This document shows positions 10,127 through 61,106 of a stretch of DNA of 64,000 nt, piece after piece. The notes under the pieces are model-generated. The model saw nothing but the letters and a program-made list of their open reading frames with translations. It was not told where the DNA came from and did no database searches. The first letter of the stretch is position 1. Every line of letters begins with the position of its first letter. Source of the DNA: Sipunculus nudus. Taxonomy: Eukaryota; Annelida; Sipuncula; Golfingiida; Sipunculidae. The stretch covers positions 75,778,300 to 75,842,299 of the forward strand of contig CM049314.1 in assembly GCA_026874595.1 (NCBI GenBank), given 5' to 3'. Position numbers and translations under genes: made by a program.

Positions 10127-11586
10127 CTAGGATATGGGTAGTCAACAAGTGACTATGTGTATCCTCCAAAATCAGAGTGGGAAAGGTGAAGTGAGGCATG
10201 GATTGAGTGGCAAGGGGAAATAGAGTGAGGTGTGTTGCATAATAGCCTGGATGTCTGCAGCCGAAATATGTATGTAGGTTGCGCCACCTACCACAAAATC
10301 CAGAAAGCTGTCCAAGATGTATAAACATGCAAAATTTTAGGCAGATAAGTCAAACCACTACTGAGATATGAGTGATTTTAGCCCACGGCAGACAAACATA
10401 TGGACACTGTGCAAAAATGGTGGCAGGTGGCGCCACCAATTTTGTGTATGATTGAGAGATATGTGAGATCTATCCACATGCAAAATTTCAGGGGGATATG
10501 TCAAACCAGTCCTGATATATAAGCCTGAATGTGTGCAGCGCATACATGAATATAGGTGGCGCCACCTGCCAAAAAAATCCAGAAAGCTATCCAAGATGTA
10601 TAAACCTGCAGAATTTTAGGCTGATAAGTCAAACCGATACTGAGATATGGGTAATTTTAGCCCACGGCAGAAAAACAGACGGACGCTGTGCAAAAATGGT
10701 GGCAGGTGGCACCGCCAATTTTGTGTATGATTAAGAGTTATGTTAGATCTACACATGTGCAAAATTTCAGGGGGATACGTCAAACCAGTTCTGAGGTATC
10801 AGCCTGAATGTCTGCAGTGTATACATAAATGTAGGTGGCGCCACCTGCCACAAAATCCAGAAAGCTATCCAAGATGTATAAACCTGCAAAATTTTAGGCA
10901 GATATGTCAAACCACTGCCTATTATGAGTGATAATATCCCACGGCAAACAAACAGACGGACGCTGTGCATAAATTATTGCAAGTGGCGCCACCGCTTTTG
11001 CGTATGATAAAGAGCTATGTGAGATCTATAAACATGCAAAATTTTTGCCCAATCGGTCAAATGGTTTCTGAGATATGAGCTTGGATGTCTGCAGCATAAA
11101 TTTGAATGTAGGTGGCGCCACCTGTCATAAAACCTAGAAAGCTGTCCAGGATGTCAACACATGCAAAATTTCAGATGGATAAGTCCAACCAATGCAGAGC
11201 TATGAGTGTTTTTATCCTAAGGCAGATGAACAGATGAACGCTGTGCAAAAATGGTTGCAGGTGGCACCACCATTTTTAGTGTATCTTATAAAGCTTTCCA
11301 AGGGCTACATTTGTGCAAAATCTTTAGCCTTATCGGTTCCCGAGATATGTGGGTTTGTGTGTGGAAACATACGCACAAATGGACGCTAAGCAGAGAGGAA
11401 AGGTCAGAGGTCAATGAAAAATGAGGGCGCACCAGTTTACATGTGACTGATAATAATTCCGAATTTAAAAAAAAAATTCTGCTTAGTTGTTATAAAGAAG
11501 TTCTCTGGAAACCTATGCGGCGATGGCGGCAGCGTCAGCGTCTGACTGAAATCATAGTATCCGTAAAACTCTGTTTTGGCGGATAC
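10127..11586 (+). mobile_element. Family J element J1, nested in B1
   Basis: It starts CTAGGATATGGGTAGTC; the hairpin arms GTAGTC and GACTAT(GT) surround a short loop, then TGTATCCTCCAAAA. It ends with a hairpin whose right arm is TTTTGGCGGATAC. The 5' and 3' inverted repeats match at 13 of 14 positions (14 of 14 in J2). Removing it restores the usual B sequence, ACACAGAAA joined to AATGATTGTAG. No ACGG tract is visible in this family. Confidence 0.75.
10276..11290 (+). repeat. J1 higher-order array: alternating ~149-bp and 129-bp monomers
   Basis: Each monomer begins with AGGTGGCGCCACC or a near match, at 10276, 10425, 10554, 10704, 10833, 10981, 11110 and 11259. The spacings are 149, 129, 150, 129, 148, 129 and 149. 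The longer monomers carry 'aaagct(a/g)tccaagatgta ... cccacggcag'. The shorter carry 'tgtgtatgatt(a/g)agag ... gcctgaatgt'. This is a regular dimeric higher-order repeat with a 278-bp period. Confidence 0.9.
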
Positions 11587-12029
11587 AATGATTGTAGCTG
11601 GCATGACCAGTCTTATATACAACGAAGAGATATATAAATATGCCCAATGTCAGACTGATATGTCAAACCCCTCCTGTGTAATAAGCAGGGACATACACTG
11701 TGCAAAAATTATTGTAGATGGCGCCACCAGCCTTGTACACTATAAAGCTACCCGATATGTATAAACATGCCAAATTTTAGGCTGATGTATCAAATTCCTC
11801 TGTAGAAATAAGAAGGCGCATACACTGCAAAAGTCAATGTTGGTGGCACCACCTGTCTTATAAGAATACAAACATGTCTTATGTGAATACCATCAAAGAC
11901 ACATAGACAGGTCAAAATATCAGTCCAATAAATCAAACTTCCCAAGAGTTTGATGCACTGGGCTGACAAGGCTTAGGTGAGTAAGGCAGTTGCCCCCGAG
12001 TGACCTGTGACAAATTGCTGCCTCAAGCT

Positions 12030-12110
12030 ACTGCACTGAGTGAACTCCTCACCTGCACCTGGCTTGACTGAGTGAACTTTTGACCTGTACCTGGCTGCTC
12101 TGAGTGAACT
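12030..12110 (+). repeat. 32-bp minisatellite inside family B
   Basis: The unit is CTGCACTGAGTGAACTCTTG followed by ACCTGTACCTGG. It recurs at the same place in the B copies near 4330, 22150, 46190, 54990, 57250 and 58810. Confidence 0.75.
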
Positions 12111-13862
12111 CTTGACCTGTTGCATAATCTGACAAAGTTGGCAGTCTGCGAAAGCTATAAATAGATTTAGGCTGAACTTTGGTACCAAATATGATGCAGT
12201 GAGCCAAAGCTATAAATAGAATGCAGCTACTGCACTGAGGAAATCTTGACCTATACCTGGCTGCAGTTCTTCCAATCCTGGCACTGTGCCAAAATTATTT
12301 ATAGAGCTGACATCATCTTGCCTAATGGCCAACATCAAGGCACTGGCAATCTGCCAATGGTAAACCAAGTGCTGCCATCTATACACAAAAGTGGTCCCTA
12401 CTTGAAATAACTTTGAAATTTATTTTTCCAATACAAAATGCTTTTCAGCTGACTTTTTATAAAAAAGAAATCAGGAATATACGTAAAATTATTACGGATT
12501 CATACTGAATGCAAAATAAAATACAGATATATCTCACTGATGGCAAATTCTTGAATTAAGTTGAGTAGGGATACCAATAATTTATAATCAACGTTCAGTT
12601 GTCTTTACATAGCCACAGAGAGCTGAATATCCTTGATTGTAACATTGCCTGGTATGATGAATAACTTAAATCATAAATTTAAAATTTTAAAAGCTTTTAA
12701 AAAAATTTTTCTGTCAATATTAACTAAAGATAACCTGAAATCTAAATGTCTAGTGGCATGATGTAATAGATGCTGATAATATGCCAGGCTAGATGAAACA
12801 GCATAACACAGCTAACATATATGGTAAAATGACTCAATTCATTCTCCATAATTCAGCCAATAATCATTCATGTGGAACCATTAATGACAATTATTATAAG
12901 AATTATGGTAGGGATTATTCTTGTAAAATATTTAACAAACTGGCTCCAGTGACATCAGTCGAAAAACGTTTCGCAGGTTTATAACTCATAAAGGAAGATA
13001 CAGCAAACTGGCTAAGTTCAGCTTCCCGTAACCAAAATGCACTGAACCAAAACCATTTGAACAAACTTGAATTATCAACATCTGAGGATAATTAATGTGC
13101 AAGATTTAAGAATTTGGCCCAGTGGTTTTTGAGAAGAAGATATTTGTAGCCACTGAGCTAAAATGGGCTGTTATATATGGCATATGATCAAATTCAGCTT
13201 CCAATAACTCAGCCAAAAGTCACTGAAAAGAGACCATTTAAACAAACTTCAGAAAGCACTACCCTAGGATCATTTCTGTGCGATATTAAACATTTTGGCC
13301 ATATGGTTCCAGAGAAGAAGTTTTTTGTAGCCCTCAGTGTGATACAGGCAATGTCGACCCTGTACAAAAAAGGCCGATGCAGGTGGCGCCACCAATACCT
13401 CAATTTCAAATATGACCTATGTGACCAACATTGGCATAAAATTTGGTGATGAAAGCTCCAGCCGTTTCTGAGATTTAAATTTTAATACGCTTTTTTGCAC
13501 AGTTAACAAAGTTCAACCTGCTGAAACTCAGCCAAAAATCTCCAAACTGGAACCATTCGAAATACTTGAGAATAATTGTTCCAGGGATTATTTCTGTGAA
13601 AAATTTTTAACAAATTGGCTGGACAGTTTCGGAGAAGAAGATTTTTAAAGCTTTTCTTGCTTTTTCCCTATAAAATCTAAGAAAATGCAGTTAGAAAAAA
13701 AATAAACAAAATCCGATATAGTTTTATGGATGACTGATTATTTGCAAAAAAATTGGTGATGCTAGCTCCTGCCGTTTTTGAGATAGCTATGGTTAACGTA
13801 CAGACGACGGACGACGCACGACAGACGTCGCCGCACCATCACATAAGCTCACAGGTTCGCTA

Positions 13863-14830
13863 AAAATACAGGTGGCAACACCAGTCTGCAGGAACTGATG
13901 GAACACCTCTTGATGAATATATATGCCAAAAATCATGACCATCTGTGTTGTAGTTATTGAGATGTTGCAGTTTTTTTTTTTATCAAATTTTCCATTATTC
14001 TGGGGGGGGGGGGGGGTAATTGGGAGCCCCACAGCTCAAAGCATATGGGTATCAGAGACCTTATTTGAGTTTCCATGGAGACTTTTCATGGGTCTCCCTG
14101 TGTGTCAAGAATGAAGATTCTAGGTCCATTCTTTACGATTTGTGCCAAGTTAACAGATGTTCACATTTTTAAAGGTCTAAAAATAGAGAAAACAATTCGT
14201 AAAAAAATCGAAAAATACAGGTTGCGCCACCAGTCTGCAGAAACTGATGAAACATCTCATGATCAATATGTATGCCAAAAATTATGACCATCAGTGATGT
14301 AGTTAATGAGATATTGAAGTTTTTGTATGAATTTTTTTTACTATTCTGGGGGGTACTTTGGGGCCCCATAGCTCAAGGGATTTGGGTAACAGAGACCTAA
14401 TTTCTGGTTTCTATGGAGACTTTTCATAGGTCTCTCACTGTTTCAAGAATGAAGATTCTAGGTCCATTCTTTACGATTTGTGCCCTGTTAACAGATGTTC
14501 ACATTTTTAAAGGTCTCAAAATTAGAGAAAAAAAAAATCGTAAAAAAATGAAAAATACAGGTGGCGCCACCAGTCTGCAGGAACTGATGGAACATCTCAT
14601 GATCAATTTGTATGCCAAAAATCATGACCATCAGTGATGTAGTTAATAAGATATTGAAGTTTTTGTATGAAATTTTAGACCATTCTGGGAGGTACTTTTG
14701 GGCCCAATAGCTCAAAGGATATGGGTAACAGAGACCTAATTTCTGGTTTCCAAGGAGTTTTTCATCGACCTCTCAGAATGTCAAGTTACAAGATTCTGAG
14801 CCCTGCGGTTACGGTTTGTGCCAGGTTAAC
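13863..14830 (+). repeat. Family A core monomers, right array of A1
   Basis: About three units resume after B1, opening at 13869, 14217 and 14559 with CAGGTGG/CAGGTTG...ACCAGTCTGCAG, a period of about 345 bp. The first contains a 15-G run (14002-14016). The last runs into the ACAG/ACGG tract and terminal hairpin. Confidence 0.8.
14002..14016. repeat. Poly-G homopolymer, 15 G
   Basis: It follows CCATTATTCT in an A monomer. Confidence 0.85.
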
Positions 14831-14904
14831 GGACAGACAGACAGACGGACGACGGACAAAGAGTGATCGCTAAAGCTCAGCATGACTGAAAGTCAGCTGA
14901 GCTA

Positions 14905-15482
14905 AAAATCAGATCAAGCTGTACAAGGGAAGAATAACATCAAGCTGTACAAGAAAAGAATAAGATCAAGCTGTACAAGAGAAAAATAACATCAAGCTGT
15001 ACAAAAGAAGAATCAGATCAAGCTGATCAAAAGAAAAATAACATCAAGCTGTACAAGAGAAGAATAAGATCAAGTTGTAAAAGTGAAGAATAAGATCAAG
15101 CTGTACAAGGGAAGAATAAGATCAAGCTGTACAAGAGAAAACCAACATCAAGCTGTAAAAGAGAAAAATCAGATCAAGTTGTACAAGAGAAAAATAACAT
15201 CAATCTGTAGCAGAAGAGAAAAATATCAAGCTGTACAAGAGAAAAATAACATCAAGCTGTACAAGAGAAGAATCTGATCAAGCTGATCAAGAGGAAAATA
15301 ACATCAAGCTGTAAAAGAGAAAAATAACATCAAGCTGATCAATAGAAAAAAAAAGGATCAAGCTGTACAAGAGAAGAATAACATCAAGCTAGTCAAGAGA
15401 AAAATAACATCAAACTGTACATGAGAAGAATAAGATCAGGCTGTACAAGAAAAGAATAAGATCAAGCTGTACAAGAGAACAA
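14905..15482 (+). repeat. 26-bp minisatellite, right part, ~22 copies
   Basis: The unit reads A(C/G)ATCAAGCTGTACAAGAGA followed by AGAATA. Units are mostly exactly 26 bp and alternate between AGATC and ACATC starts. Because 26 is not a multiple of three, the open frame through it (15083-15277) is a by-product. The array continues 8280-8403 across A1. Confidence 0.88.
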
Positions 15483-21660: not shown

Positions 21661-22319
21661 AAAATGATTTTAGCTGGCACCACCAGTATTGTATACAACA
21701 AAGCTACCACAGATATATACATATGCCCAAGTTCAGACTGATATATCAAACCCCTCCTGAGAAATAAGCAGGGACACACACTGTGCAAAAAATTATTGTA
21801 GGTGGCACCACCAGTCTTGTATACGACAAGTATACGATAATTAAAATACGATAGGTATAAATATGCCCAATTTCAGGATGAAATATCATCAATTATTGAT
21901 ATAATTAACTATGATTAACTATTGATATAATTCCTCAATAGAAATAAGCAGGCACAAAAGTCACACACTGTGCAAATGTCATTGTAGGTGGTGACACCTG
22001 TCTTGTGAACAAGAAACCCATCAAAGACCAATAGACAGGTCAGAATATTAGGCCAATACATCAAACTTACCTAAGTCTGATGCATGGGGCTGATCATGTT
22101 AGGTGAGAAAGGCAGTTGCCCCGAGTGAACTATGACAAATTTGCTAGCTCAGGCTACTACACTGAGTGGACTCATGACCTGCACCTGGCTAGACTGGGTG
22201 AACTTTTGACCTGTACCTGGCTGCACTGAGTGAACTCTTGACCTGTTGCCTAATCTCATACAGTTGGCAGTCTGCCAAAGCTATAAATAGATTGGCTCCA
22301 CATGCAGCCCTGAGGGGCA

Positions 22320-22412
22320 TGACACCCATGAGATGATCACATGCTGCCGATGAGGTGACCACATGCTGCCCATGAGGTGTTCACATGTCACCCATGAGGG
22401 GATCACATGCCT
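22320..22412 (+). repeat. 22-bp minisatellite inside family B
   Basis: The unit is about CACCCATGAGGTGATCACAT followed by GC, with the palindrome TGATCA or variants. The same array occurs in B3 (27008-27070), B5 (46255-46345) and B7 (59046-59150), with different copy numbers. Confidence 0.8.
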
Positions 22413-25173
22413 TGTGCTTGGCTGCACTGACTGAACTCTTGACCTTTATCTGGCTGCACTGAATGAACTTTTGATCTATTGCCAAATCTGAAACAGTTGG
22501 CAGTTTCTTAACCTATTTAAATATACAGACATGATCTTGGCCTGTTGGCAAATCTGTTTACACATACTGAGAGACTTTGGCTAAAATGCTTTTTTTCAAG
22601 CTGAAATATTCATCAACTTTTTTTTTATTCAAAATATCTAGAATAATCAAAGATTCAGGTCTTTCATTGTTAAAGGTCCAATAATTCTACCAAAAATCAT
22701 TCAAGTAACCTTGAACAAAGGCCACCTAAGAATAATGTTTGTGCCATGGAACAGAAGTTATAATTGAAACAATAATTTTGTAGAAGAACAGTTTTGCAGA
22801 TCTCAGTTTGAGTTAGAAATAATAATGGCCATAAGACCAATTAAGTTTTTCTGATATGATTGAAAGAACCATGTCCTATGATAATTCTTTTGAAATATTG
22901 AACGATTCAACTTGACAGTTTTATCATAAACATTTTAAGCTGAAAGAGGCTAAAATTATGAGGTTTTTGCCCATAAAAAAACAGTTCAATATAGGTGGCA
23001 CATCAAATCTGCAACTTCAAATATGAGTCATGTGAACAACATTTGCACTGGCATAAAATTTGGTGATGATAACTCTGGCCGTTTTTGAGATTGTCATTTT
23101 AGTATGCTTTTTAGACAGATAACAAGGTTCAACTTCCTGTAATTCGGCCAAAAATCACCGAACTTAAACTTGAACCATTTGAACAAACTTGAGAGAAATG
23201 GGATAAAAGAATATTTTTGTGAAATATTGAACAAATTGGCTTGACTGTTTCAGAGGAGAAGATTTAAAAGGTTTTTTTTAGCTTTTTCTCTATAAAATCT
23301 AAGAAAATGTCAATTTTTTCAGATGGCTAATTTTTTGCATTAAATTTCATGATGCTAGCTCCACTCATTTTCGAAATAGTATGGGTTTACGATACCTGTG
23401 ATTGTAAACATTGCCTGGCATGAGAAATATCTAAAATCATAAATCTACATTTTTTAAAAAGTTTTTAAAAAACATTCTTGTCAATATTAACCAAAGATAA
23501 CCTGAAATCTTAATGTCGGGAGCATGATGTAACGGATGCTGATAAACTGGTTCCAGGCCAGATGTATCTGCTTCACACAACTAACATATATGGTATAATG
23601 ACTCAATTCAATCTTTATTATTCATTAAAAATTCATTCTTTGGAACCATAAAAGACAATTATTATCAGAATTATTCAGGGGATTATTCTTGTAAAATATT
23701 AAACAAATTGGCCTCAGTGGCTTCAATTAAGAAACGTTTTGCAGGTTTATAACTCATATGGGAAAATAAAGCAAAATGGCTAAGTTCAGCTTTCAATAAC
23801 TCAGCCAAAAATCACTGAACCGAAACCATTTGAACAAACTTAAATTATCAACATCTAAGGATAATTAATGTGTGAGATTTAAGAATTTGGCCCAGTGGTT
23901 TTTGAGAAGAAGATCTTTGTAGCCACTTAGCTAAAATGGGCTGTTATGGCATATGACTAAATTCAGCTTCCCTTAACTCAGCCAAAATTCACTGAAGTGA
24001 GACCATTTGAACAAACTTCAGAAAGCACTACCCTTGGATCATTTTTTTGCGATATTAAACAATTTGGCCAAATGATTTCAGAGAAGAAGTTTTTTTGTAG
24101 CTGTCAGTATGATACGGGCACTGATGACCCCCGTTCAAAAAAGGCCGATGCAGGTGGCGCCACCAATACCTCAATTTCAGACATGACTCATGTGACCAAC
24201 ATTGGCATAAAATTTGGTGATGACAGCTCCAGCCGTTTCTGAGATTGTAATTTTAGTATGCTTTTTTGGACAGATGACTAAGTTCAACTAGCTGTAACTC
24301 GGCCAAAAATCACCGAACTTAAACCATTCGAAAAAACTTGATAGAGATTGTTCCAGGGATCATTTTTGTGTAATATTGGACAATTTGGCTGAACAGTTTC
24401 GGAGAAGAAGATTTTTAAAGCTTTTTTTAGCCTTTTCTCTATAAACTCTACAAGAATGCAGTTAGGCAAAAAATAAGCAAAATCCGATGGAGTTTTTTAG
24501 ATGACTAATTTTTGCAGAAAATTTTTTATGCTAACTCTTGCCGTTTTCAAGATAGTATGGGTTAACGTACAGATGACGGACGCCGGACGACGCCACACCA
24601 TCCCATAAGCTCACAGGTTCGCTAAAAAATTTCTACTATTCTGGGGGGTTTTCTGAGCCCCACAGCTTGGAAAATATTGGTGACGGAGACCTAATATAGG
24701 TTTCCAAGAAGACTTTTTATGGGCCTCCCTGCATACCTAGATAAAAGATTCTAGGTTCAGTCATTACCATTTGTGCCCTGTTAAAACATGACCACACCAA
24801 TAAAGATCTAAAAAAAAAAACAGAAAAAAAATCGTAAAAAATAAAAATATATAGGTGGCACCAGTCTGAAGAAACTAATGAAACATTAAATGACCAATAT
24901 CCTTCGAATGATTAATGGTGATCAATGCATTGGTCGTTCAGATACTTGAGCTTTTGTATCAAATTTTTCATTATTCTAGGGGTAACTTCTGAGCCCCATA
25001 GCATGCAGAATATCAGCGACAGAGAACTTTTTTCCTCAGGACACTTTTCATGTGCCTCCCTTTATGTCAAGATACAAGATTCTAGGTTGTCATTCCAGTT
25101 TGTGCCCTGTTAACAGATGACCACATCTTTAAAGGTATCAAAAACTGAAAGAAAATTGTTAAAAAAAAATAAA

Positions 25174-29006: not shown

Positions 29007-29359
29007 AAAAATACAGGTGGCGCCACCAGACTGCAGAAACGGGTGAAAAATTCCATGATCAATATCCATGCAAAGAAAAATGGTGATCAATGCAATAGCT
29101 GTTCAGATACTTGAGCTTTTGTATCAAATATTCCATTATTCTTGGGGGTACTTTGGAGCACAAAACTCACAGGTTAAGGGTAACAGAGACCTAATTTCAG
29201 GTTTCCAAGGAGACCTTTCATGGGCCTCCCTGCATGTCAAGAGAGAAGATTCTAGGTCCAGTCGTTACGGTTTGTGCTTGGTTAAAGAATGGACAGACGA
29301 ACAGCCGGACAGACAGACTGCCGCCGGACAAAGAGTGATTCCTAAAAATCCCTTGCCAC

Positions 29360-32612: not shown

Positions 32613-33290
32613 CTAGAATATTAGCAAAAGCTGATAATCAGTTATAAATTTAAATTGGAGAGGTATGTACCATGTTTCATAACAATCCACCAAATGCTTC
32701 CTGAGAAATAAGCTCCTAAGTATTTTTCTATACTAAGCTCTGTGACCTTGAAAAGTAGGTCAAGATCACCCATCTTTGAACTTGACCAAGATTTTGTAAA
32801 TATAATGCAATAGCACTGAAGAAATGAAGTTCCTGTATTGAATATCTTTGGAGATATCCTGCACAAAAGGCCAAATTGAAAAATCCGATAAAATTTCATT
32901 AAAAAATCAGAAATTGCAGGTGGCGCCACCAAAATTGTGCAGCACGTACAGACCATCAGACCCAATGATTATAGAAAGTTTTGTGAACATCCACACAATG
33001 GTTCCTGAGATATAAGCTTCTGAGTGTTTTTCTATAATCAGCACTTAAATGTAGAAAATGGGTCAAGGTCACCCATCTTCGAACTTGGCCGAGATTTTAT
33101 CGATATACATCTTCACTGATGAAATAAAATTCCAACGGTGAATCCTTTTAGAGATATCCAGCTCACAAGGTAAAAGTTAACAGACGCGGAACAGACGGAC
33201 TGACGGACACCGGACAGACAGATGGACGGACGGGCAGACGGACAGCTTGGGTGACGACAATAGCCCATGAGCCTATGAGCTGACGGCTTA
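32613..33290 (+). mobile_element. Family G element G1, nested in F2
   Basis: The start is CTAGAATATTAGCAAAAGCTG, shown here in two halves of one hairpin (TTAGC and GCTGA). The body has the shared palindrome GGTGGCGCCACC at 32919-32930, 'ggtcaaggtcacccatctt' phrases in two ~310-bp units, and a dense ACGG/ACAG tract at 33180-33240. It ends GGGTGACGACAATAGCCCAT and then GAGCTGACGGCTTA. The flanks are F monomer sequence, with the insertion at TGCGAAA / AAATGG. Confidence 0.75.
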
Positions 33291-44163: not shown

Positions 44164-44755
44164 AAAACAGGTGGCTCTACCAGTCTGCAGAAACTAAAAA
44201 AAACACCTAATGGTAAATATCCATGCAAAGAATCATGGTGATCTCTGCAGTAGTTATTCAGATACTTAAGCTTTTGGATCAAATTTTCCTTTATTCTGAG
44301 GGATACTTCGGAGTCCTATAGCTTGATGGATATGGGAAACAGAGACCTAATTTTAGGTTTCTTCAGACATTTTTTATGGGCCTCCTATCATGACAAGAAT
44401 GAAGATTCTAGGTCCAGTTATTACGATTTGTACCCTGTTGACAAATAACCACATCTTTAAATGTCTCAAAAATAGAGAAAACCCAGTCTGCAGAAAATGA
44501 TGGAACACCTCATGATCAATATGTATTCCAAAAATCATGACCATCACTGATGTAGTTAATGAGCTATTGAAGTTTTTGTACGAATTTTTTTTGTACTATC
44601 CTCGGGGGGGGGGGGGTACTTTCGGGCCCCATAGCTCAAAGGATATGGGTAGGTCCAACGGTGTCAAAACGTGCCCTGTTAACGGACGTCGCCGGCCGGC
44701 CGGCCAATGGATCACGACTATAGCTCAGATGACTTATAGTCAGCTGAGCTAAAAA
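44164..44755 (+). repeat. Tandem duplication of ~590 bp (A monomer plus C tail)
   Basis: CTGAGCTAAAAACAGGTGGC then TCTACCAGTCTGCAGAAACTA occurs at 44158 and again at 44749, with matching sequence for more than 300 bp after each. The first copy ends with a second C 3' tail (GTCCAACGGTGTC, CGTGCCCTGTTAACGG, CCGGCCGGCCGGCC, GACTATAGCTCAG). The unit therefore spans the C2 tail and the following A monomer. Unequal exchange between C tails is the simplest explanation. Confidence 0.75.
44604..44616. repeat. Poly-G homopolymer, 13 G
   Basis: It lies in the A monomer at the same site as the G-runs at 2848 and 14002. Confidence 0.85.
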
Positions 44756-44763
44756 CAGGTGGC

Positions 44764-45713: not shown

Positions 45714-48477
45714 CAAGGCCTACAGGCCTAATGCGAACCTGTGCATATGGATATACACCAGATATATCGCTTCAATGCTGAACCACTACTTTTCATATAT
45801 ATGAACAATGCAAGTACTAAACATTTTGAACAAGAAACAATACACTAACATCACTGCTGAAATTCTGGCATGGGTGCACACAACACAAAAATTATTGTTG
45901 GTGGCACCACCAGTCATGTATACGACAAAGCTATTTGACATGTATAAATATGCCCAATGTCAGGCTTATATATCAAATTCTTCCGTAGAATTAAGCAGGC
46001 ACATACACTTGGCAACACCTGTCTTGTGAATTAGAAAGCCATTAAAGACACCTAGACAGGTCAGAATATCAGGCCAATACATCGAACTTACCTTGAGTCT
46101 GATGCACGGAGCTGATCAGGCTTAGGTGAGAAAGGCTGTGGCCCCGAGTGTACTGTGACAAATAACTTGCTCAGGCTACTGCGCTAAGTGAACTCTTGAC
46201 CTGCACCTGGCTAGACTGAGTGAACTTTTGACCTGTACCTGGCTGCACTGAATAAACATGAGGTGATCACATGATACTCATGAGGTAATCACATGCTACC
46301 CATGAAATGATCACATGCTGCCCATGAGGTGATCACATGCCTTGTGCTTGGCTGCACTGATTGAACTCTTGACCTAAATCTGGCTGCACTGAATGAACTC
46401 TTGATCTGTTGCCAAATCTGAAACAGTTGGCAGTTTCTCAACCTATTCAAGAAACATACACAATCTTGACCGGTAATGTAACTCTGCTAAAATTTATCCA
46501 ACACAAACCATTTGAACAAACTTGAGAAGGCTCGCCTCTGGGATCATTTCTGTAAAAATATTGAACAATTTGGCTGGACTCTTTACAAGAAGAAGAAATT
46601 TTTTTTCAGCTTTTCCCCTGTAAAATCTAAGTTAATGCAGATAGCAAAAATAAGCGGAATCCATCAACATTTGATATGTGACTGATAATTGCAAAAAATT
46701 TGGTGATGGTAGCTCCTGCTATTTCTGAGAAATTATGAATAGTGTACAGATGATATGTAATATCATAAATCTACACTTTAAAAAAGCTTTAAAAAAACAT
46801 TCTTGTCAATATTTTCCATAGATATTCTGAAATCTAAATGTCTAGAGGCATGATGTAATGGATGCTGATAAACTGGTGCTAGGCTAGATGTATCTGCTTC
46901 ACACAGCTAACATATATGGTAAAATGACTCAATTCAATCTTTATAATTCAGCCAAAATTCATTTTTTGGAACCATAAAAGACAATTATTATTAGAGTGAT
47001 TCAGAGAATTATTCTTGCAAAATATTAAATAAACTGGCCTCAGTATTATCAGTCGAAAAACGTTTTGTAGGTTTATAACTCATATGGGAAAATACAGCAA
47101 AATGGCAAAGTTCAGCTTCCCATAACTCAGCCAAAAATCATTGAACCAAAACCATTAGAACGAACTTGAATTATCAACTTCTAAGGATAATTAATGTATG
47201 AGATTTAAGAATTTGGCCCAGTGGTTTTTGAGAAGAAGATTTTTGTAGCCACTCAGCTAACATGGGCTGTTATGGCATATGACTAAATTCAGCTTCCCAT
47301 AACTTAGCCAAAGTCACTGAACTGAGACCATTCGAACAAACTTGAATTATCAATATCTAAGGATAATTAATGTGTGAGATTTAAGAATTTGGCCCAGTGG
47401 TTTTTGAGAAGAAGATTTTTGTAGCCACTCAGCTAACATGGGCTGTTATGGCATATGACTAAATTCAGCTTCCCATAACTTAGCCAAAGTCACTGAACTG
47501 AGACCATTCGAACAAACTTGAATTATCAATATCTAAGGATAATTAATGTGTGAGATTTAAGAATTTGGCCCAGTGGTTTTTGAGAAGAAGATTTTTGTAG
47601 CCACTTAGCTTACATGGGCTGTTATGGCATATGACTAAATTTAGCTTCCCATAACTCAGCCTAAAGTCACTAAACTGAGAGCATTTGAACAAACTTGAAT
47701 TATCTGCACCTAAGGATAATTAATGTGTGAGATTAAGAATTTGGCCCAGTGGTTTATGAGAAGAAGATTTTTGTAGCCACTTGGAAAATGGGCTGTTATG
47801 GCATATGACTAAATTCAGCTTCTCATAACTTAGCCAAAAGTCACTGAACTGAGACCATTTGAACAAACTTCAGAAAGCACTACCCTAGGATCATATCTGT
47901 GCGATATTAAACAATTTGGCCATTTCGTTTCAGAGAAGAAGTTATTTGTAGACGTCAGTATGATACGGGCACTGATGACCCCCGTACAAAAAAGGCCGAT
48001 GCAGGTGGCGCCACCAATACCTCAATTTCAGATATGACTCATGTGACCAACATTGGCATAAAATTTGGTGATGATAGCTCAGGCCATTTCTGAGATTGTA
48101 ATTTTAGTATGCTTTTTTGGAAAGATGACTAAGTTCAACTTCCTGTAACTCGGCAAAAAATCACCGAACTTAAAGCATTCGAACAAACTTGAGAGAGATT
48201 GTTCCAGGAATCATTTCTGTAAAATACTGAACAATTTGGCTGAACAGATTCGGAGAAGAAGATTTTTTGAAGGTTTTTTATCTTTTTCCCTTTAAAATCT
48301 AAGAAAATGCAGTTAGCCAAAAAATAAGCAAAATCCGATAGAGTTTTTTAGATGACTAATTTTATGCACAAGTTTTCGTGATGCTTATTCTTGCCGTTTT
48401 CAAGATAGTATGGGTAAACGTACAGACGACGGACGACGGACTACGCCACACCATCGCATAAGCTCACAGGTTCGCTA
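45714..48477 (+). mobile_element. Family B element B5, complete, nested in A2
   Basis: The start is CAAGGCCTACAGGCCTAATG then GCGAACCTGTGC; the end is CACAGGTTCGCTA at 48465-48477, an exact 11-bp inverted match. It has the 22-bp minisatellite (46255-46345), an expanded array of ~176-bp monomers (47130-47830), and an ACGG tract at 48420-48440. It shares its opening ('catatggatatacaccag') with B7, so these two are close relatives. No nested element. Confidence 0.8.
47130..47830 (+). repeat. ~176-bp tandem array in B5, four units, recently expanded
   Basis: AAGAATTTGGCCCAGTGGTT starts at 47207, 47383 and 47559 (176 bp apart), and a fourth unit at about 47735 has one base deleted just before it. 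The units starting near 47305 and 47481 differ at only about three positions over ~176 bp. B1, B2 and B4 carry only one such unit, so the array grew after the B family spread. Confidence 0.88.
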
Positions 48478-49476
48478 AAAAAACTGGTGGCAGAACCAGT
48501 CTGCAGAAACAATTGGAACACCTCTTGATCAATATGTATGCCAAAAAATCATGACCATCAGTTTGTAAATATTGAGATGTTGCAGCTTGTTTTTATCAAA
48601 TTTTCCATTATTCTGGGGGGGTAATTGGGAGCCCCACAGTTCAAAGGATATTGGTAACAGAGACCTTATTTCAGGTTTTCATGGCGACTTTTCATAGTTC
48701 TCTCACTGTGTCAAGAATGAAGAATCTAGGTCCAGTCTTTACGATTTCTGCCCTGTTAACAGATGTTGACATTTTTTAGGTCTCAAAAATAGAGAAAATA
48801 ATTCGTAAAAAAAAAAATAAAAAAATTCAGGTGGCGCCACCAGTCTACAGGATCTGATGAAACATCTCATGATTAATATGTATGCCAAAAATCATGACCA
48901 TCAGTGATGCAGTTAATGAGATTTTGAAGTTTTTGTATGAAATTGTTTTTTACTATTCTGGGGGGTACTATCGGGCCCCATAGCTCAAAGGATATGGGTA
49001 ACAGAGACCGAATTTCTAGTTTCCACGGAGACTTTTCATAGGTCTCTCAGTGTGTCAAGAATTAAGATTCTAGGTCCAGTCTTTACGATTTGTGCCCTGT
49101 TAACAGATATTGACATTTTTAAAGGTCTCAAAAATAGAGAAAAAAATTCGTAAAAAATCGAAAAATACAGGTGGCGCGACCAGTTCTCTGGTACTGATGA
49201 AACATCTCATGATCAATATGTATGACAAAAATCATGACCTTCAGTGATGTAGATAATGAGATATTGACTTTTTTTAATGATTTTTTTTACTTTTCTGGGG
49301 GGTATTTTGAGGCTACATAGCTCGAAGGATATGGGTATTTTCATGGACCTTTCAGAATGCCAAGTTACAAGATGCTAGGTCCAGTGGTTACGATTTGTGC
49401 CTGGTTAACGGACGGACAGACGGACAAAGAGTGATTGCTATAGCTCAGACGACTTTCAGTCAGCTGAGCTAAAAAA

Positions 49477-53470: not shown

Positions 53471-53809
53471 GCGAAATTAAACACTGCGACATCAAATGAA
53501 ACATTAACAAGGCCTACAGGCCTAATGCGAACCTGTGCAGTGGCATATAATACAACAGGTATTATGCTTCAATGCTGGATCATTACTTTTTCAAAGACGT
53601 GTAATATGTTCATGAGCAATGTAAATACTAAACATTTGAACAAAACCAATAACACAAAAATCACTACTGAAATACTGGCGTGGGTGCCCACAACACAAAA
53701 CTGATTGTAGTTTGCGCCACCTGTCTTGTATACAACAAAGCTATCCTAGATGTACACATATGCCCAATTTCAGGCTGAGAAATAAACAGGGACATAAACT
53801 GTGCAAAAA

Positions 53810-54706
53810 CTAGAATACAGGTAGTCGACAAGCGACTACGTGTATCCGCCAAAATCAGAGTAGGACAGGTTAAGTGAGGCATGGATTGAGTGGCAAGGGG
53901 AAATAGAGTTACATGTGTAACATATAAGAATGGATGTCTGCTACGTAAACATGGTTGTAGGAGGCAGCACCTGTTATTTGAACGAGAAACTATCCAAGAT
54001 GTATACACATGCAAAATTTCAGGTTGAAAAGTCAAACCACTGCAAAGATATGAGTGATTTTATCCCACAGCAGACAAACAGATTGAAGCTGTGCAAAAAT
54101 GGCTGCAGTTGGCGCCACCATTTTTGTGTATGTTATAAAGCTATCCAAGGGCTACATTTGTGTAAAATTTTGTCCTGATTGGTCGAACGAGTCCAGAGGT
54201 TTAAGCATTGATGTCTACAGCCTGAACGTGAATGTAGGTGGCCCCACCTATCATAAAATCAAGAAAGCTATGCGCGATGTATACGCATGCCGAATTACAG
54301 GTAATTTGGTCAAACCACTGCAGAGATATGAGTGATTTTAGCCCAAGGCAGACAAACAGATGGACGCTGTGCAAAAATGGCTGCAGGTGGCGCCACCATT
54401 TTTGTGTATGTTATAAAGCTATCCAAGGGCTACAATTGTACAAAATGTTTTTCCTGATCGGTCAAACGGTTCCCGAGATATGTGGGTTTGTGTTGAAACA
54501 GACGCACAAATGGACGCTGGGCAGAGAGGATAGGTCAGAGGTCAAGGCCAATTGGTTTGGCACCAGTTTACATGTGACCCGATAATTTGTGTAAGTTTTT
54601 GATAAATCTGTGCAGTAGTCTCAGACGAGTTCTCCGGAAATGAACGTGGTGGCAGCGGAAACCGGTCAAAAACATAGTATCTGCAAAACTTCGTTTTGGC
54701 GGATAC
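53810..54706 (+). mobile_element. Family J element J2, nested in B6
   Basis: The start is CTAGAATACAGGTAGTCGAC, hairpin arms GTAGTC and GACTAC, then TGTATCCGCCAAAA. The end TTTTGGCGGATACA is an exact 14-bp inverted match, and TATCTGCAAAACTTCG before it makes a 3' hairpin. Monomer starts carry variants of the shared palindrome (54106, 54236) and an exact copy at 54386-54397. It has fewer monomers than J1. Confidence 0.78.
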
Positions 54707-55977
54707 AATTATTGTAGGTGGCACCACCAGTCTTATATACGACAAAAAAATTCGATATGTGTATATGAGCACAATTTCAGGCTGATATATAAAATGCCTA
54801 CTACGAAAAATAAACAGGTACATACACTGGGCAAAAGTCATTGTAGGGGGCTACACCAGTCTTGTTAACGAGAAAGCCATCAAAGATGCATGGACAGGGC
54901 AAAACATCAAGCCAATACACCAAATTTCTCTTGAGTCAGGTGCACTGGGCTAACCAGGCATAGGTAAGGAAGGCAGTTGCTGGCTCCAGCTACTGCACTG
55001 AGTGAACTCCTGACCTGCAACTGGCTGCACTGAGTGAACTCCTGACCTGTATCTGGGTTCACTGAGTGAACTATTGACCTGTTGCATAATCTGACACAGT
55101 TGGCAGTCTCCAAAGGTATAAATAGATCCAGACTATATCCATTAGAATAATAAAAAATGCAGTCATTTCATTGTTAATAATTGAATAATTTAATAATTGT
55201 CCAATAATTCTGCCAAAAATCATTTCAGTGAACTTATACAAAGGCCTCCTAAGAATCATTTTTGGGCAATGTCACAGAAGTTGAAACCACAGGTTTACAG
55301 AAGAGGACTATTCCAGCCCAGTTTGAAATAGACTAACTTATGGCCCCAAGACCAACTCAAGTCATATATGACTCTACCAAAACTCAATGAACACAATCTA
55401 TTCATATACACTTGAAAGGAACTTACCCGAGGATAATTCTTGTGAAAAATTAAATTACTCAGCTTGACAATTTCATCATAAAACATTTTTAATTTGAAAA
55501 TGGATTAAATTATGAGGTTTTTGACCGTAAAAAAAATTGTAGTTGGCGCTAAAAACGGCATTTCAAGTATGAGTCATGTGACCAACATTTGCATAAAACC
55601 TGGTGATGCTAGCACCTGTAGTTTCTGAAATTGTTATGTTAATATGCTTATTGCCGAAATGACTAAGTTCAAATTCCTGTATCTTGGCCAAAATTCATCA
55701 CACCAAAACCATTTGAACAAACTTAGGAGAGCTTGTCTCTTGGATCATTTCTGGATTATTTCTATGAAACAGTTTGGTTGAATGATTTCAGAGGAGGAGA
55801 TTTTGAAAGTTTTTTTTATCTTTTCAACTTAAATATAAGATAATGCAGGTGGCGCTACCAATCCCACAAAATTTTATATGTGACAGAGTTCTGCATATTA
55901 TTTAGAGATCTTATTTCCCGCCATTCCTGAGAAAAGATGGTAAAATGTACTGACCCTCGTATAAAAAGGTTGATGCA

Positions 55978-57100
55978 GGTGGCACCACCAATACCCCAAT
56001 TTCAAATACAATTCCTTCAGGCCTTATACGGACCTTGTAGATGGGATATGCGCCAGGTATAATGCTTCAATGCTGGACCATAACTTTTCAAGTACAAGTG
56101 TAACATGTATATAATCAATGCAAGTACTAAACATTTTGAACAAGAACCAATTACACAAACATCACTGCTGAAATTCTGGCATGGGTGCACACAACACGAA
56201 AATGATTGTAGCTGGCATAACCAGTCTTGTATATGACGAAGCTCTAAAAGATATATACATATGCCTCATTTCAGGTTGAGATATTGAACCCCTCTTGAAA
56301 AATATGCAGGGACATACAAAATGCAAAAACTGTTGTAGGTGATGCCACCAGCCTTGTATATGACAAAGCTATAAGAGATGTAAACATATGCCCAATTTCA
56401 GGTTTATATATTAAACTCCTCTTGAGAAATAAGCAGGGACGTACAAAGTGCAAAAAATATTGTAGGTGGCACCATCGGTCTTGTACATGACAAACTATAA
56501 GAGATGTGTACAAATGCCAAATTTCAGGTTGATATATTGGTGGCACCACCAATACCCCAATTTCAAATACAATTCCTTCAGGTCTTATGCGGACCTGTGA
56601 GACGGGATATACACCAGGTATGATGCTTCAATGCTGGACCATAACTTTTCAAGAACATGTGTAACATGCATATGAACAATGCAAGTACTAAACACTTAGA
56701 ACAAGAAACAATTAAACAAACATCACTGCTGAAATTCTGGCATGGGTGCATACGACACAAAAACTAGAATATGGGTAGTCAACAAGCGACTACGTGTATC
56801 CGCCAAAATCAGAGTGGGACGGGTGAAGTGAGGCATGGTTTGAGTGGCAAGGGGAAATAGAGTAAGGTGTTTTGCATAATAGCCTGGATGTCTACAGCCA
56901 AAATGTGTATGCAGGTTGCGCCACCTACCACAAAATCCAGAAAGCTGGATACAAAGTGCAAAATTATTGTGGGTGGCGCCGCCAGTCCAGTATATGACAA
57001 AGCTATCTGATATGTAGAAACATGCCCAATTTAGTCTAATGTATCTATTTCCTACGGAAAACGAGTAGGCACACACACCGTGTTAAAGTCATTGGGCAGG
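55978..57100 (+). repeat. Tandem duplication of ~561 bp within B6
   Basis: GGTGGCACCACCAATACCCC followed by AATTTCAAATACAATTCCTTC begins at 55978 and again at 56539. Matching 'gggatatRcRccaggtatRatgcttcaatgctggacc' sequence continues after each. J3 was inserted only in the second copy, so it arrived after the duplication, unless it was lost from the first. Confidence 0.72.
56764..56955 (+). mobile_element. Family J element J3, internally deleted
   Basis: The start is CTAGAATATGGGTAGTCAAC with the hairpin arms GTAGTC and GACTAC and TGTATCCGCCAAAA. It loses its tandem array after one partial monomer, and rejoins at GGATACAAAGTGCAAAATTA, which may keep the last six bases of the J 3' end. Confidence 0.65.
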
Positions 57101-57991
57101 CGACGTCTGTCTTGTCAACGAGAAAGCATAACAAGGTCAAAATATCAGGCCAACTTATCAAACTTCTCTTGAGTTTCTTGCACTGGGCTGACCTGGCTTC
57201 GGTGAGAAAGGCAGTTGCCCAGAGTGAGCTGTGACAAATTGCTGGCTCATGCTTCTGCACTGAGTGAACTCTTGACCTGCACCTGGCTAGACTGAGTGAA
57301 TTTTTAACCTGTACCTAGCTTCACGGAGTGAACTCTTGACCTGTTGCATAATCTGACACAGTTGGCAGTCTGCCAAAGCTATAAATAGATCCAGACTGAC
57401 ATTTGGCGCCAAATCTGATGCGGTGGACATTCTGCCAAAGCTAAAAATACAATGCAGCTACTGCATTGAGTGAACTCTTGACCTGTTACCTAACCTGATG
57501 CAGGCAGTTTACAAAAGCTATTATAAATCCAGGCTGGCCTTTGACCTGTTGCCAGATCTGAATTACTTGGCAGCCTGCCAAGCTATTTACAAAATCAGAC
57601 ACAATCTTAGCCTGTTGGTAAATCTGTTTACACATACTGAAGGACTTTTTGCTAAAATGATTTTTTGATTTCAAGCTAATGTATTCATAAGATTTTTCAT
57701 TTAAAAGAAAATCAGAATATGCAGTCCTTTTATCTTTAAAAGGGTTTTATAATTGTAACGAAAAAAAATAAGTAACCTGAACAAAGGCCACCTAAGAACC
57801 ATTTAAGAGCAATGCTACATAAATTGAAACAACAGTTTTGCAGAAGGAGACGATTGCAGCCTTTAGTTTGAAATAGGTTGATTACTAATGGTCTCAAGAC
57901 TAACTTTCTATGACTCTTCCGAAAATCAATGAACCCAACCTATTCTTATACAAAAAAAAATCCTTTCCTAGGATATTCTCTATTGAAAAAA

Positions 57992-58332
57992 CAAGGGACC
58001 CATGTGTCAGGGTGCTCAGCTTCTATATATGATAAAAAAATATGATTTGGAAATGAGGCACATGCTGGTTTTGTGTGGTAGTAAATATTAAGCTGTATTA
58101 TGAGTTGTTCGTGTTTAGCTTACGTATCATTTTTATAGTATCTTTGGAGACAGGGAAGAGGATTGATTTCATTTATTTTATTAACAAATGGAGTGCTATT
58201 GCCACACAGATTTTGACTTGGCCATTGAACTTATAAGAAGCACATATAAGAGTTTAACTATTTATTAAAATTAAATAACAAATATTGTGCTAAATATAAT
58301 TTTCATAATAAGAGAATCATATGATTTTTTAA
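57992..58332 (+). mobile_element. Family E 5' fragment
   Basis: CAAGGGACCCATGTGTCAGG then TGCTCAGCTTCTATATATGA and 'gaggcacatgctggttttgtgtggta', as at 34259. No core repeats and no 3' end are seen before B7 starts. Confidence 0.5.
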
Positions 58333-61106
58333 CAAGGCCTACAGGCCTAATGCGAACCTGTGCATATGGATATACACCAGGTATAACGCTTCAATGCTGA
58401 ACCAATACTTTTCATATATATGAACAATGCAAGTACTAAACATCTGAACAAGAAACAATACACAAACATCACTGCTGAAATTCTCGCATGGGTGCACACA
58501 ACACAAAAATTATTGTAGGTGGCACCACCAGTCTTGTATACAACAAAGCTATTTGACATGTATAAATATGCCCAATTTCAGGCTGATATATCAAATTCCT
58601 CCGTAGAATTATGCAGGCACATACACTTTGCAAAAGTCATTGCAGATGGCGACACCTGTCTTGTGAACGAGAAAGCCATTTAAGACACATAGGTCAGAAT
58701 AACAGGCCAATACATAAACTTACCTTGAGTTTGTTGCATTGGGCTGACCAAGCTTAGGTCAGAAAGGCTGTTGCCCCGAGTGTACTGTGACAAATTACTG
58801 GCTCAGGCTACTGCACTGAGTGAACTCTTGACCTGCACCTAGGTAGACTGAGTGAACTTCTGACTTGTACCTGGCTGCACTGAGTGAATTCTTGACCTTT
58901 TGCATAATCTGACACAGTTGGCAGTCTGCCAAAGCTATAAATAAATCCAGACTGACCTTTTGCCTGTTGCCAAATCTGAAATAGTAGCCACACAATTGCA
59001 TAAGCTCACAGATTGGCTCCATATGCAGCCCTGAGGGGCATGACACCCATGTGGTGATCACATGATACTCATGATGTGATCACATGCTACCCATGAGATG
59101 ATCACATGCTGCCCATGAGGTGCTCACATGACACCCATGAGGTGATCACATGCCTTGTGCTTGGCTGCACTGATTGAACTGTTGACCTATATTTGGCTGC
59201 ACTGAATGAACTCTTGATCTGTTGCCAAATCTTAAACAGTTGGCAGTTTCTCAACCTATTCAAGAAACATACACAATCTTGGCCTGTTATGTAACTCTGC
59301 TAAAATTTATCAAACACAAACCATTTGAACAAACTTGAGAGGGCTCGCCTCTGGGATCATTTCTGTAAATTTCTGACCGTTTAGAAGAATAAAACTTTTA
59401 AAGTTTTTTCAGCTTTTCCCCTGTAAAATCTTAGTAAATACAGATAGCAAAAATAAGCTGAATCCATAAACATTTATTTTGTGACAGATAATTGCATAAA
59501 ATTTGGGGATGGTAGCTCCTGCTATTCCTGAGAAATTATGAGTTAGTGTACAGATAATATCTAATATCATAAATCTACATTTTTAAAAGCTTTTAAAAAA
59601 CATTATTGTCAATATTTTCCATAGATAACCTGAAATCTAAATGTCTAGAGGCATGATGTAATGGATGCTGATAAACTGGTGCTAGGCTAGATGTATCTGC
59701 TTCACACAGCTAACATGAATGGTAAAATGACTCAATTCAATCTTTATAAATCAACCAAAATTCATTCTTTGGAACAATAAAAGACAATTATTATAAGAAT
59801 TATTCAGGGAATTATTCTTGCAAAATATTAAACAAACTGGCCTCAGTATCATCAGTCGAAAAACGTTTTGTAGGTTTATAACTCATATGGGAGAATACAG
59901 CAAAATAGCAAAGTTCAGCTTCCCATAACTCCGCCAAAAATCATTGAACCAAAACCATTTGAACAAACTTGAATTATCAACTTCTAAGGATAATTAATCT
60001 GTGAAAATTTAAGAATTTGGCCGAGTGGTTTTTGAGAAGAAGATTTTTGTAGCCACTTAGCAAACATGGGCTGTTATGGCATATGACTAAATTCAGCTTC
60101 CCATGACTCAGCCAAAAGTCACTGAACTGAGACCATTTGAAAAAACTTGAATTATCAACATCTAAGGATGATTAATGTGTGATATTTAAGAATTTGGCCC
60201 AGTGGTTTTTGAGAAGAAGATTTTTGTAGCCACTTAGCTTACATGGGCTGTTATGGCATATGACTAAATTCAGCTTCCCATAACTCAGCCAAAAGTCAAT
60301 GAACTGAGACCATTTGAACAAACTTGAATTATCAACATCTAAGGATAATTAATGTGTGAGATTTAAGAATTTGGCCCAGTGGTTTTTTTTAGAAGATTTT
60401 TGTAGCCACTTAGCTAAAATGGGCTGTTATGGCATATGACTTAATTCAGCTTCCCATAACTTAGCCAAATGTCACTGAACTGAGACCATTTGAACAAACT
60501 TCAGAAAGCACTACCCAAGGATCATTTCTGTGCGATATAAAACAAACAGGCCATTTCGTTTCAGAGAAGAAGTTATTTGTAGCTGTCAGTATGATACGGG
60601 CACTGATGACCCCCGTACAAAAAAAAGCCGATGCAGCTGGGTGGCGCCACCAATACCTCAATTTCAGATATGACTCATGTTACCAAAATTGGCATAAAAT
60701 TTGATGATGATAGCTCAAGCCATTTCTGAGATTGTAATTTTAGTATGGTTTTTTGGACAGATGACTAAGTTCAACTTCCTGTAACTCGGCCAAAAATCAC
60801 CGAACTTAAACCATTCAAACAAACTTGAGAGAGATTGTTCCAGGAATCATTTCTGTAAAATATTGGACAATTTGGCTGAACAAATTCAGAGAAGAAGATT
60901 TTTTTAAGCTTTTTTAGCTTTTTCCCTATAAAATCTAAGAAAATGCAGTTAGCCAAAAAATAAGCAAAATCCGATAGAGTTTTTTAGATGACTAATTTTA
61001 TGCATAAGATTTCATGATGCTAATTCTTGCCGTTTTCAAGATAGTATGGATTAACGTACAGACGACGGACGACGCCACACCATCGCATAAGCTCACAGGT
61101 TCGCTA
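58333..61106 (+). mobile_element. Family B element B7, complete
   Basis: The start is CAAGGCCTACAGGCCTAATG then GCGAACCTGTGC after AATTTTTTAA. The end CACAGGTTCGCTA (61094-61106) is an exact 11-bp inverted match. It carries the 32-bp (58810-58890) and 22-bp (59046-59150) minisatellites, three ~177-bp units (60011, 60188, 60365), an exact GGTGGCGCCACC at 60640-60651 and an ACGG tract at 61058-61075. It is the cleanest reference copy of the family here (2.77 kb, nothing nested). Confidence 0.82.
59935..60470 (+). repeat. ~177-bp tandem array in B7, three units
   Basis: AAGAATTTGGCC starts at 60011, 60188 and 60365. It is homologous to the four-unit array of B5 at 47130-47830. Confidence 0.85.

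What the first reader, a model, noticed from the sequence alone, without database searches (positions are those of the whole stretch)
10276..60651. Perfect 12-bp palindrome GGTGGCGCCACC at monomer junctions of four different families
I count 14 exact copies (10426, 10555, 10834, 11111, 13382, 14560, 24153, 28097, 29016, 32919, 48004, 48830, 54386, 60640) and many one-mismatch copies. They occur in families A, B, G and J, whose monomers are otherwise dissimilar, and in the arrays they mark unit starts. About 0.004 exact copies would be expected by chance in 64 kb. Conservation of the palindrome above its surroundings suggests a protein-binding, recombination or nicking site common to the families, or a word copied between them.
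Basis: partly seen in the sequence, partly recalled or inferred. Interest (0 to 1): 0.88.

Follow-up and report, generated by a model that had tools for sequence, protein, structure and literature searches.

The report
Shared palindrome in clustered transposon repeats
A 12-letter palindrome found over 100,000 times in this animal genome is the best-kept core of several kinds of repeat unit, at least one of them carried by a rolling-circle-type mobile element; copies seem to decay freely once inserted, so it may matter for making new copies rather than for the host.

Summary
In detail: all 14 exact copies are where stated, with 21 further one-mismatch copies. The genome (1.4265 Gb) has 111,729 exact sites; the string read backwards has 14. 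The families are not independent: four unit types (A, A', G, G') are homologous along the unit without the palindrome; F, J and K are at most distantly related. The palindrome is the best-conserved 12-column stretch between the four homologous types (91.7% against 62.4%) but only moderately raised within types. Resident copies appear to lose it at the neutral rate: 2/90 against 106/4,728 non-CpG changes in nine copies of one element. So any constraint acts on source elements. The J repeats are the central array of a HINE, a non-autonomous Helentron: inverted subterminal repeats, GTCC-type microsatellite and terminal palindrome were found, with nine different left flanks. GGTGGCGCCACC is not that terminal palindrome. 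Element ends join mostly at A-runs beside it, so a nicking or insertion site is not supported. My best reading is a dyad bound during element amplification; function is untested. New member of a known kind.

The parts
10252..11360 (+). A'/A array: alternating units of 129 and 149 bp (period 279), each headed by the palindrome at 10277 (1 mm), 10426, 10555, 10705 (2 mm), 10834, 10982 (1 mm), 11111, 11260 (1 mm)
   Evidence: TRF period 279; palindrome-masked HMM hits; coordinates
11578..11966 (+). G-G-G' units, palindromes at 11717 and 11842 (1 mm each)
13358..13487 (+). F unit, exact palindrome 13382; other F units with exact copies at 24153, 28097, 48004, 60640, degraded at 28554, 35351, 27649
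13852..14666 (+). J array (period 340), palindromes 13871 (2 mm), 14220 (1 mm), 14560 (exact); other J units at 8568-9708, 29000-29122, 44151-45493, 48468-49274
29016..29027 (+). exact palindrome of a J unit that follows directly on the end of a P block (...GCTAAAAAATACA)
32919..32930 (+). exact palindrome of the K unit (297-bp family; relative at 49855 with 3 mm)
48830..48841 (+). exact palindrome, J unit
53688..54952 (+). G / A'-A-A'-A / G-G' arrays, exact palindrome 54386, one-mismatch copies 54108, 54237, 54717
56441..56570 (+). G unit that switches to F-like sequence exactly at a palindrome (56539, GGTGGCACCACC)
   Evidence: sequence
14874..14908 (+). element end: hairpin AGCTCAG...CTGAGCT then AAAAA (in HINE orientation the 5' subTIR + IR), preceded by a GGAC/GACGGAC tract; same kind at 3115, 16891, 44134, 44722, 49442
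8406..8437 (+). other element end: AGTGACCCAGGGGTCATGA (1 mm) + CTCAGCTGACT, the HINE 3' subTIR and terminal palindrome; also 42141-42172 and, weaker, 17180
   Evidence: defined on nine copies
12404..13867 (+). P block with 177-bp satellite unit and F unit, ending GGTTCGCTAAAAAT; copy 34368-35827 (91.6%), parts at 23399-24628, 28382-29012, 47632-48482, 60261-61110
   Evidence: self-blast; ends

Best explanation
GGTGGCGCCACC is the core box of tandem-repeat units that form central arrays of non-autonomous Helentron-type rolling-circle elements (HINEs) in this genome. Shown, within the limits stated: A, A', G and G' units share descent; five of seven unit types have the box exact and the other two differ at one position, while the rest is 48-62% identical; resident copies lose it about as fast as neighbouring DNA; the J element has the HINE layout at both ends; the genome has many Helitron_like_N domain matches. 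Inferred: all unit types sit in HINEs; the palindrome is kept because source elements need it to make or retain copies, most likely as a dyad bound by a dimeric or two-site protein (element Rep/helicase or a host factor), offered many times in an array. Clustering, shared orientation and array starts next to the palindrome come from a second feature: units other than A' usually have an A-run on the same strand mostly 4-10 bp before the palindrome, and element ends join at such A-runs with fixed polarity, so elements pile up head to tail.
For: Copy number 111,729 against 14 for the reversed string, density repeated in random loci. Between types: palindrome 95.2% against 48.1% over seven unit types; 91.7% against 62.4% over the four homologous ones, the best 12-column stretch, next non-overlapping one 87.9%. 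Palindrome-masked profiles hit across A/A'/G/G', e.g. the A profile on 17 of 19 A' and 12 of 17 G units. Decay: palindrome(non-CpG)/flank divergence ratio 1.32 (95% CI 0.81-2.13) for the closest pairs, then 1.02 (0.75-1.36), 0.76 (0.55-1.05), 0.69 (0.45-1.09) with rising divergence; in nine copies of one element 2/90 against 106/4,728. HINE ends: nine copies share (T)AACAAGTGACCC...CTCAGCTGACC with nine different flanks; opposite end TTTTTAGCTCAGCTGACT + IR + GTCC-type tract. PF14214: 143 matches (150 candidates scored), seven in open frames over 2,000 aa. Joins: 1,181 within 20 bp, 253 at 21-41 bp; 44 distinct join strings among the 100 listed of the first set, 42 of the 100 being one string.
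Against: Ascertainment: families were seeded from palindrome hits, so unit types that lost the palindrome were not sought, which inflates between-type conservation; K was taken as one exact unit. Within types the palindrome is not outstanding: rank among 12-mers 2/120 (A), 3/121 (A'), 24/118 (G), 65/122 (G'), 32/119 (F), 38/112 (J); the G and G' consensuses are GGTGGCACCACC and GGTGGCGACACC. Another stretch, around AAAGCTATC, is nearly as conserved. F, J and K: z from -1.4 to 3.8. The same elements hold tandem units without the palindrome (177-bp satellite; ~167-bp J tail copies), so it is not needed in every monomer. All decay intervals include 1. HINE structure was traced to both ends only for the J element. 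No binding protein or function was shown.
Confidence: 0.55

Rival explanations
1. Plain inheritance: related units share an ancestor and the palindrome survives by chance and by hitch-hiking in successful lineages; it does nothing.
For: Homology of A/A'/G/G'; near-neutral decay of resident copies; only modest within-type elevation; a second stretch nearly as conserved; families were seeded from palindrome hits, so types without it were not sampled.
Against: 12 of 12 positions identical in the consensus or type unit of five of seven unit types (A, A', F, J, K) while the rest is 48% identical; it is the top stretch of the four homologous types although its CpG columns mutate faster.
Confidence: 0.27
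2. Host-protein site: a host DNA-binding protein (for instance a CTCF-like zinc-finger factor; from recall, AGGTGGCGC resembles a CTCF core) uses the dispersed copies, and the host keeps them.
For: An A precedes the palindrome in 82 of 88 units examined, so the word is longer than 12 bases; copies on average every ~13 kb.
Against: Resident copies are not visibly protected from mutation.
Confidence: 0.08
3. Structural role: the palindrome forms a cruciform or RNA hairpin that promotes slippage, nicking or array rearrangement.
For: Perfect palindromy; single rearrangements at the palindrome (56539 G-to-F switch; 4-bp insertion at 60640). Literature: 13 of 16 junctions of phBglII400 lie in a 12-bp palindrome (PMC5139131, passages).
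Against: No compensatory change seen: 0 of 40 local double mutants are at paired positions, 3.3 expected (this sample is rich in loci chosen for exact copies, and the central CpG pair biases the test); genome-wide paired double GATGGCGCCATC 431 sites, 2.1 times the independence expectation of at most 203, no more than the 2.25-fold excess (40 against 17.7) of unpaired doubles locally. The genome-wide unpaired control did not complete. Element joins sit mostly in A-runs. No Rfam match.
Confidence: 0.08
4. Terminator of rolling-circle transposition: the palindrome is the element's own 3' terminal hairpin.
For: Joins to the next element lie within 20 bp in 1,181 cases.
Against: The left terminus of nine J-element copies is (T)AACAAGTGACCCAGGGGTCATGA..., with its own palindrome.
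Confidence: 0.02

Closest known systems
Cg_HINE elements, non-autonomous Helentrons with satDNA-like central repeats, Pacific oyster (PMC7492417; passages seen)
   Same: subTIR + IR + GTCC-type microsatellite on one side, tandem array, inverted subTIR + palindrome on the other side; T-rich insertion preference; repeats and flanks in fixed orientation; sometimes two consecutive arrays
   Different: here one 12-bp palindrome is shared by several repeat types, at 111,729 exact sites; whether Cg_HINE repeats contain it is open (GGTGG and CCACC do not occur in the main text; consensus tables are in supplements not available here)
Nematode satDNA Box 1 / CENP-B box-like (PMC3694981; abstract and section 13 read)
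   Same: a short motif stays conserved among monomers that are otherwise 32-64% identical and lies at monomer transitions; a neighbouring Box 2 made of T, C and A tracts also marks transitions
   Different: there 17 bp, in satDNA arrays of root-knot nematodes, not described as a perfect palindrome; no test of post-insertion decay in what I read
phBglII400, DTC84, BIV160/Cg170 repeats of bivalves (PMC5139131; passages seen)
   Same: 12-bp palindrome at most array junctions (phBglII400), palindrome near the repeat junction (DTC84), two conserved motifs across divergent monomers (BIV160/Cg170)
   Different: their palindrome letters were not in the passages seen, so identity with GGTGGCGCCACC is unknown

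Membership tests
HINE (non-autonomous Helentron), J element | 5' subterminal repeat followed by complementary IR | tested here: met
   TTTTTAGCTCAGCTGACT-ATAAGTC-ATCTGAGCTATAG in HINE orientation, several copies
HINE (non-autonomous Helentron), J element | inverted subTIR near the 3' end | tested here: met
   GTCAGCTGAGC (11 bp, inverted copy of GCTCAGCTGAC) 25-36 bp from the end in nine copies, one letter different in L031; a little closer to the end than the 38-60 bp quoted for mite HINEs
HINE (non-autonomous Helentron), J element | palindrome close to the 3' end | tested here: met
   TGACCC-CT-GGGTCA 6-7 bp from the end (quoted range about 8-35); it is not GGTGGCGCCACC
HINE (non-autonomous Helentron), J element | short microsatellite and central tandem array | tested here: met
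   GGAC/GACGGAC (= GTCC) tract beside the hairpin end, J monomers of ~337 bp
HINE (non-autonomous Helentron), J element | insertion in T-rich sites without target-site duplication | tested here: inconclusive
   right ends join mostly at A-runs; nine left flanks differ and several lack an A-run; no empty sites were compared
HINE (non-autonomous Helentron), J element | autonomous Rep/helicase partner with matching ends | tested here: inconclusive
   143 PF14214 matches in the genome; their ends were not compared with the J ends
HINE for the A/A', G, F/P and K elements | subTIRs and terminal palindrome at both ends | tested here: inconclusive
   P block has a GACG tract and a GTTCGCTAAAAA end (0-1 mm) in six copies and a left edge shared by two; A/G edges not resolved; K not tried
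BIV160/Cg170 satDNA superfamily | its two conserved motifs | not testable with these tools
   motif letters were not in the passages seen
Known RNA family (ribozyme, snRNA, tRNA-derived) | Rfam match at gathering score | tested here: not met
   0 matches in the window; 0 tRNA genes by ARAGORN with bacterial code

The most novel reading that the evidence does not exclude
The palindrome is the shared recognition site of one transposition or replication machinery that mobilises several HINE families whose repeats are otherwise hardly recognisable as kin; tandem arrays evolved as multi-copy binding platforms (iteron-like), so selection keeps the dyad in source elements while the many resident copies decay.
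Probability: 0.2. Interest if true: 0.75.

Novelty: new member of a known kind. Interest (0 to 1): 0.45.

Why it matters
Why so many mobile elements and satellites of invertebrates carry tandem arrays with short conserved boxes is an open question. Here the level at which a box is kept can be measured: apparently not in resident copies, but between spreading lineages. That turns a vague 'conserved motif' into a testable claim about a site that source elements need. It also suggests how A-run targeting with fixed polarity can build long, same-strand clusters.

Tried and rejected
Rejected: palindrome as rolling-circle terminator of the J element (its end is elsewhere). Rejected: a hairpin regularly upstream of array starts (43 first units mean z -0.34, 56 inner units -0.31). 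Rejected: very long-range strand coherence; J clusters on the first 11 Mb of contig C1 (100 listed of 10,573 sites, 59 clusters, one of mixed strand) agree in 13 of 16 pairs within 50 kb, 7 of 11 at 50-100 kb, and about half beyond 200 kb; adjacent clusters agree in 36 of 58, p 0.036. Not supported: that the two halves of J are sisters (z -0.1; the tail half matches A' at z 5.0; the 177-bp unit scores 2.8 with G, 2.3 with F, -0.9 with A'). Rejected: known RNA or tRNA. No use: the exact 12-mer in papers (one unrelated paper); a 22-mer in viral contigs (0); AGGTGGCGCC with 'repeat' (five unrelated papers by their listing); GAGCTAAAA (none in the 10 listed). The order-reversed search (3 hits) is a weak control, because that arrangement would need a deletion inside an element. 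Some joins are of the other polarity, e.g. four tandem ACTGG joins and C3:40941254.

Dropped rows and limits: conservation tables use the 109 of 132 units that span the palindrome; flank statistics use 88. Overlapping loci L003, L005-L007 and L034 were left out, which does include loci fetched because they hold the palindrome. Comparison with other bivalves was not possible: the genome has no relatives in the collection.
Full report
OBSERVATION. All 14 exact copies of GGTGGCGCCACC are at the stated places and 21 more have one mismatch; dinucleotide shuffles give none and 0.03. In the window it is the third most frequent palindromic 12-mer after two AT repeats (14 copies; next 5). In the whole genome (1,426,538,692 bases) there are 111,729 exact sites, against 14 for the string read backwards. 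Twenty 10-kb loci drawn at random from the first 75 Mb of contigs C1-C9 held 15 exact, 20 one-mismatch and 12 two-mismatch copies; the window is denser (14 in 64 kb) but not unique.

FAMILIES. From the sequence around each copy I separated unit types A, A' (alternating, 129 + 149 bp), G, G' (~127 bp), F, J (~337 bp) and K (~297 bp); letters are mine. Profiles of six types (not K) were built with the palindrome masked and searched against the window and the 20 random loci: 132 units, 75 in the window and 57 in 11 of the 20 loci. The seeds were chosen from palindrome hits, so types that lost it were not sought. Masked profiles of A, A', G and G' hit one another's units with E down to about 1e-11; the F and J profiles hit only their own, and the A profile hit one F unit at 0.002. 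Consensus scores against 300 shuffles: z 7.7 to 18.3 within A/A'/G/G'; J-A' 3.8, J-G 3.6, K-A 2.9, F-A 2.7, J-A 2.4, F-A' 2.3, K-G 1.9, the other eight pairs from -1.4 to 1.1. In the MAFFT alignment all seven keep the palindrome and a later TGAGAT-like box in register, so distant kinship of F, J and K is possible but not proven. The J element also holds ~167-bp tail copies without palindrome; the J tail resembles A' (z 5.0) but not the palindrome half of J (z -0.1).

CONSERVATION. Between unit types the palindrome is 95.2% identical and the rest 48.1% (seven types), or 91.7% and 62.4% in the four homologous ones, where it is the best 12-column stretch; the next non-overlapping one, around AAAGCTATC, reaches 87.9%. 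Within types it is raised in A and A' (ranks 2/120 and 3/121), moderately in G, F and J (24/118, 32/119, 38/112) and not in G' (65/122). Other features, in 88 units with a recognisable palindrome: an A before it in 82, most often as TACA, TGCA or TGTA; an A-run of four or more within 35 bp upstream in all 26 J, 13 of 14 F, all 13 G, all 7 G', 10 of 14 A but 1 of 14 A', mostly 4-10 bp away (background 26% of 35-mers).

LEVEL OF CONSTRAINT. Pairs of units were binned by flank divergence. Non-CpG palindrome divergence over flank divergence is 1.32 (0.81-2.13) below 15%, 1.02 (0.75-1.36) at 15-25%, 0.76 (0.55-1.05) at 25-35% and 0.69 (0.45-1.09) above, and about 0.09 between consensuses. Pairs are not independent, each interval includes 1, and the between-type figure is inflated by the seeding. 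An independent check, nine copies of one composite element not chosen for this particular palindrome, gives 2/90 non-CpG changes in it and 106/4,728 elsewhere; CpG columns 4/18 and 22/198. So copies are not visibly protected after insertion; what is kept is the motif in lineages that spread.

CARRIER. Some element ends read GGAC-tract ... TATAGCTCAGATGACTTATAGTCAGCTGAGCTAAAAA. In reverse complement this is the left flank described for HINEs of the oyster: subTIR, complementary IR, GTCC-type microsatellite (PMC7492417, passages). The other end was found by comparing nine copies of a composite J element: similarity stops at (T)AACAAGTGACCCAGGGGTCATGACGCTCAGCTGACC with nine different flanks. It contains the inverted subTIR and a terminal palindrome, in the order HINE descriptions give, at slightly shorter distances (PMC4067079, passages). 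Both end types occur in the window on the + strand. The genome has 143 matches to the Helitron_like_N domain PF14214, seven in open frames above 2,000 aa; whether these drive the J elements was not tested. The A/G, F/P and K carriers were not traced to both ends.

JOINS AND ORIENTATION. CTGAGCTAAAAA followed by the palindrome within 20 bp occurs 1,181 times, at 21-41 bp 253 times. The 100 places listed hold 44 distinct join strings, among them F-like (GCCGATGCAGG), G-like (TTACTGTAGG) and many J-like joins; 42 of the 100 are one string, part of an amplified composite element. The joins mostly continue into the A-run of the target unit, also inside units (L029:2014, L025:8189). Since the A-runs lie on one strand of the units and the element end has fixed polarity, nested elements share orientation; this step is inferred. 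It fits the window: 75 of 75 units on +, 239 of 240 self-matches of 250 bp or more direct, and one strand per locus in the 11 random loci with units, one of which has a single unit. A whole-sequence comparison with the window shows minority-strand matches in L009, L013, L015, L018 and L023; those listed map to another repeat at 30.5-31.3 kb or to 43.4 kb in four of them, but L009 has J- and K-like ones. Coherence fades beyond about 100 kb. At one place whole elements stand in tandem with period 1,047 bp (overlapping loci L033/L034).

STRUCTURE OR PROTEIN SITE. Double mutants do not favour paired positions: 0 of 40 locally, 3.3 expected (the central CpG pair and the choice of loci bias this test); genome-wide GATGGCGCCATC 431 sites with 9,525 single variants, 2.1 times independence, like the 2.25-fold excess of unpaired doubles locally. 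This speaks for a protein dyad over a cruciform, weakly.

KNOWN OR NEW. Conserved boxes shared by divergent monomers and lying at junctions are known (nematodes PMC3694981, abstract and section 13; bivalves PMC5139131, passages), as are HINEs with tandem arrays (PMC7492417, passages). The exact 12-mer was found in one unrelated paper of the library. What I did not see elsewhere, in the listings and the passages read, is this scale, the sharing of one palindrome by several repeat types of one genome, and the separation of post-insertion decay from between-lineage conservation; subscription papers and supplements were not searched.

Noticed in passing
window 1-64000; L009-L028: Same-strand clustering of palindrome units: 75 of 75 in the window, one strand per locus in 11 random loci with units; ascribed here to polarity-fixed joins at A-runs.
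   Followed up: partly
window 62723-63076: Reading frame matching RT_RNaseH_2 (PF17919, 1.5e-26): fragment of a retroelement.
   Followed up: no
window 14907-15479 and 8285-8403: 26-bp minisatellite (ATCAAGCTGTACAAGAGAAGAATAAC) directly beside an element end in both places.
   Followed up: no
window 12031-12120, 22157-22410, 27005-27143, 46187-46340, 54993-55082, 57258-57344, 58814-59152: 32-bp and 22-bp minisatellites recur, mostly a little after G/G' units.
   Followed up: no
G000 C1:3704382-3756270 and C1:63708403-63739576: Six places of GATGGCGCCACC spaced 10.2-10.4 kb, and four identical joins, two of the three spacings 9,762 bp: large tandem duplications.
   Followed up: no
window 60640: 4-bp insertion GCTG exactly at the left edge of the palindrome of an F unit.
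   Followed up: no
window 30561-31294: Another dispersed repeat whose copies in random loci lie on mixed strands, unlike the palindrome units.
   Followed up: no
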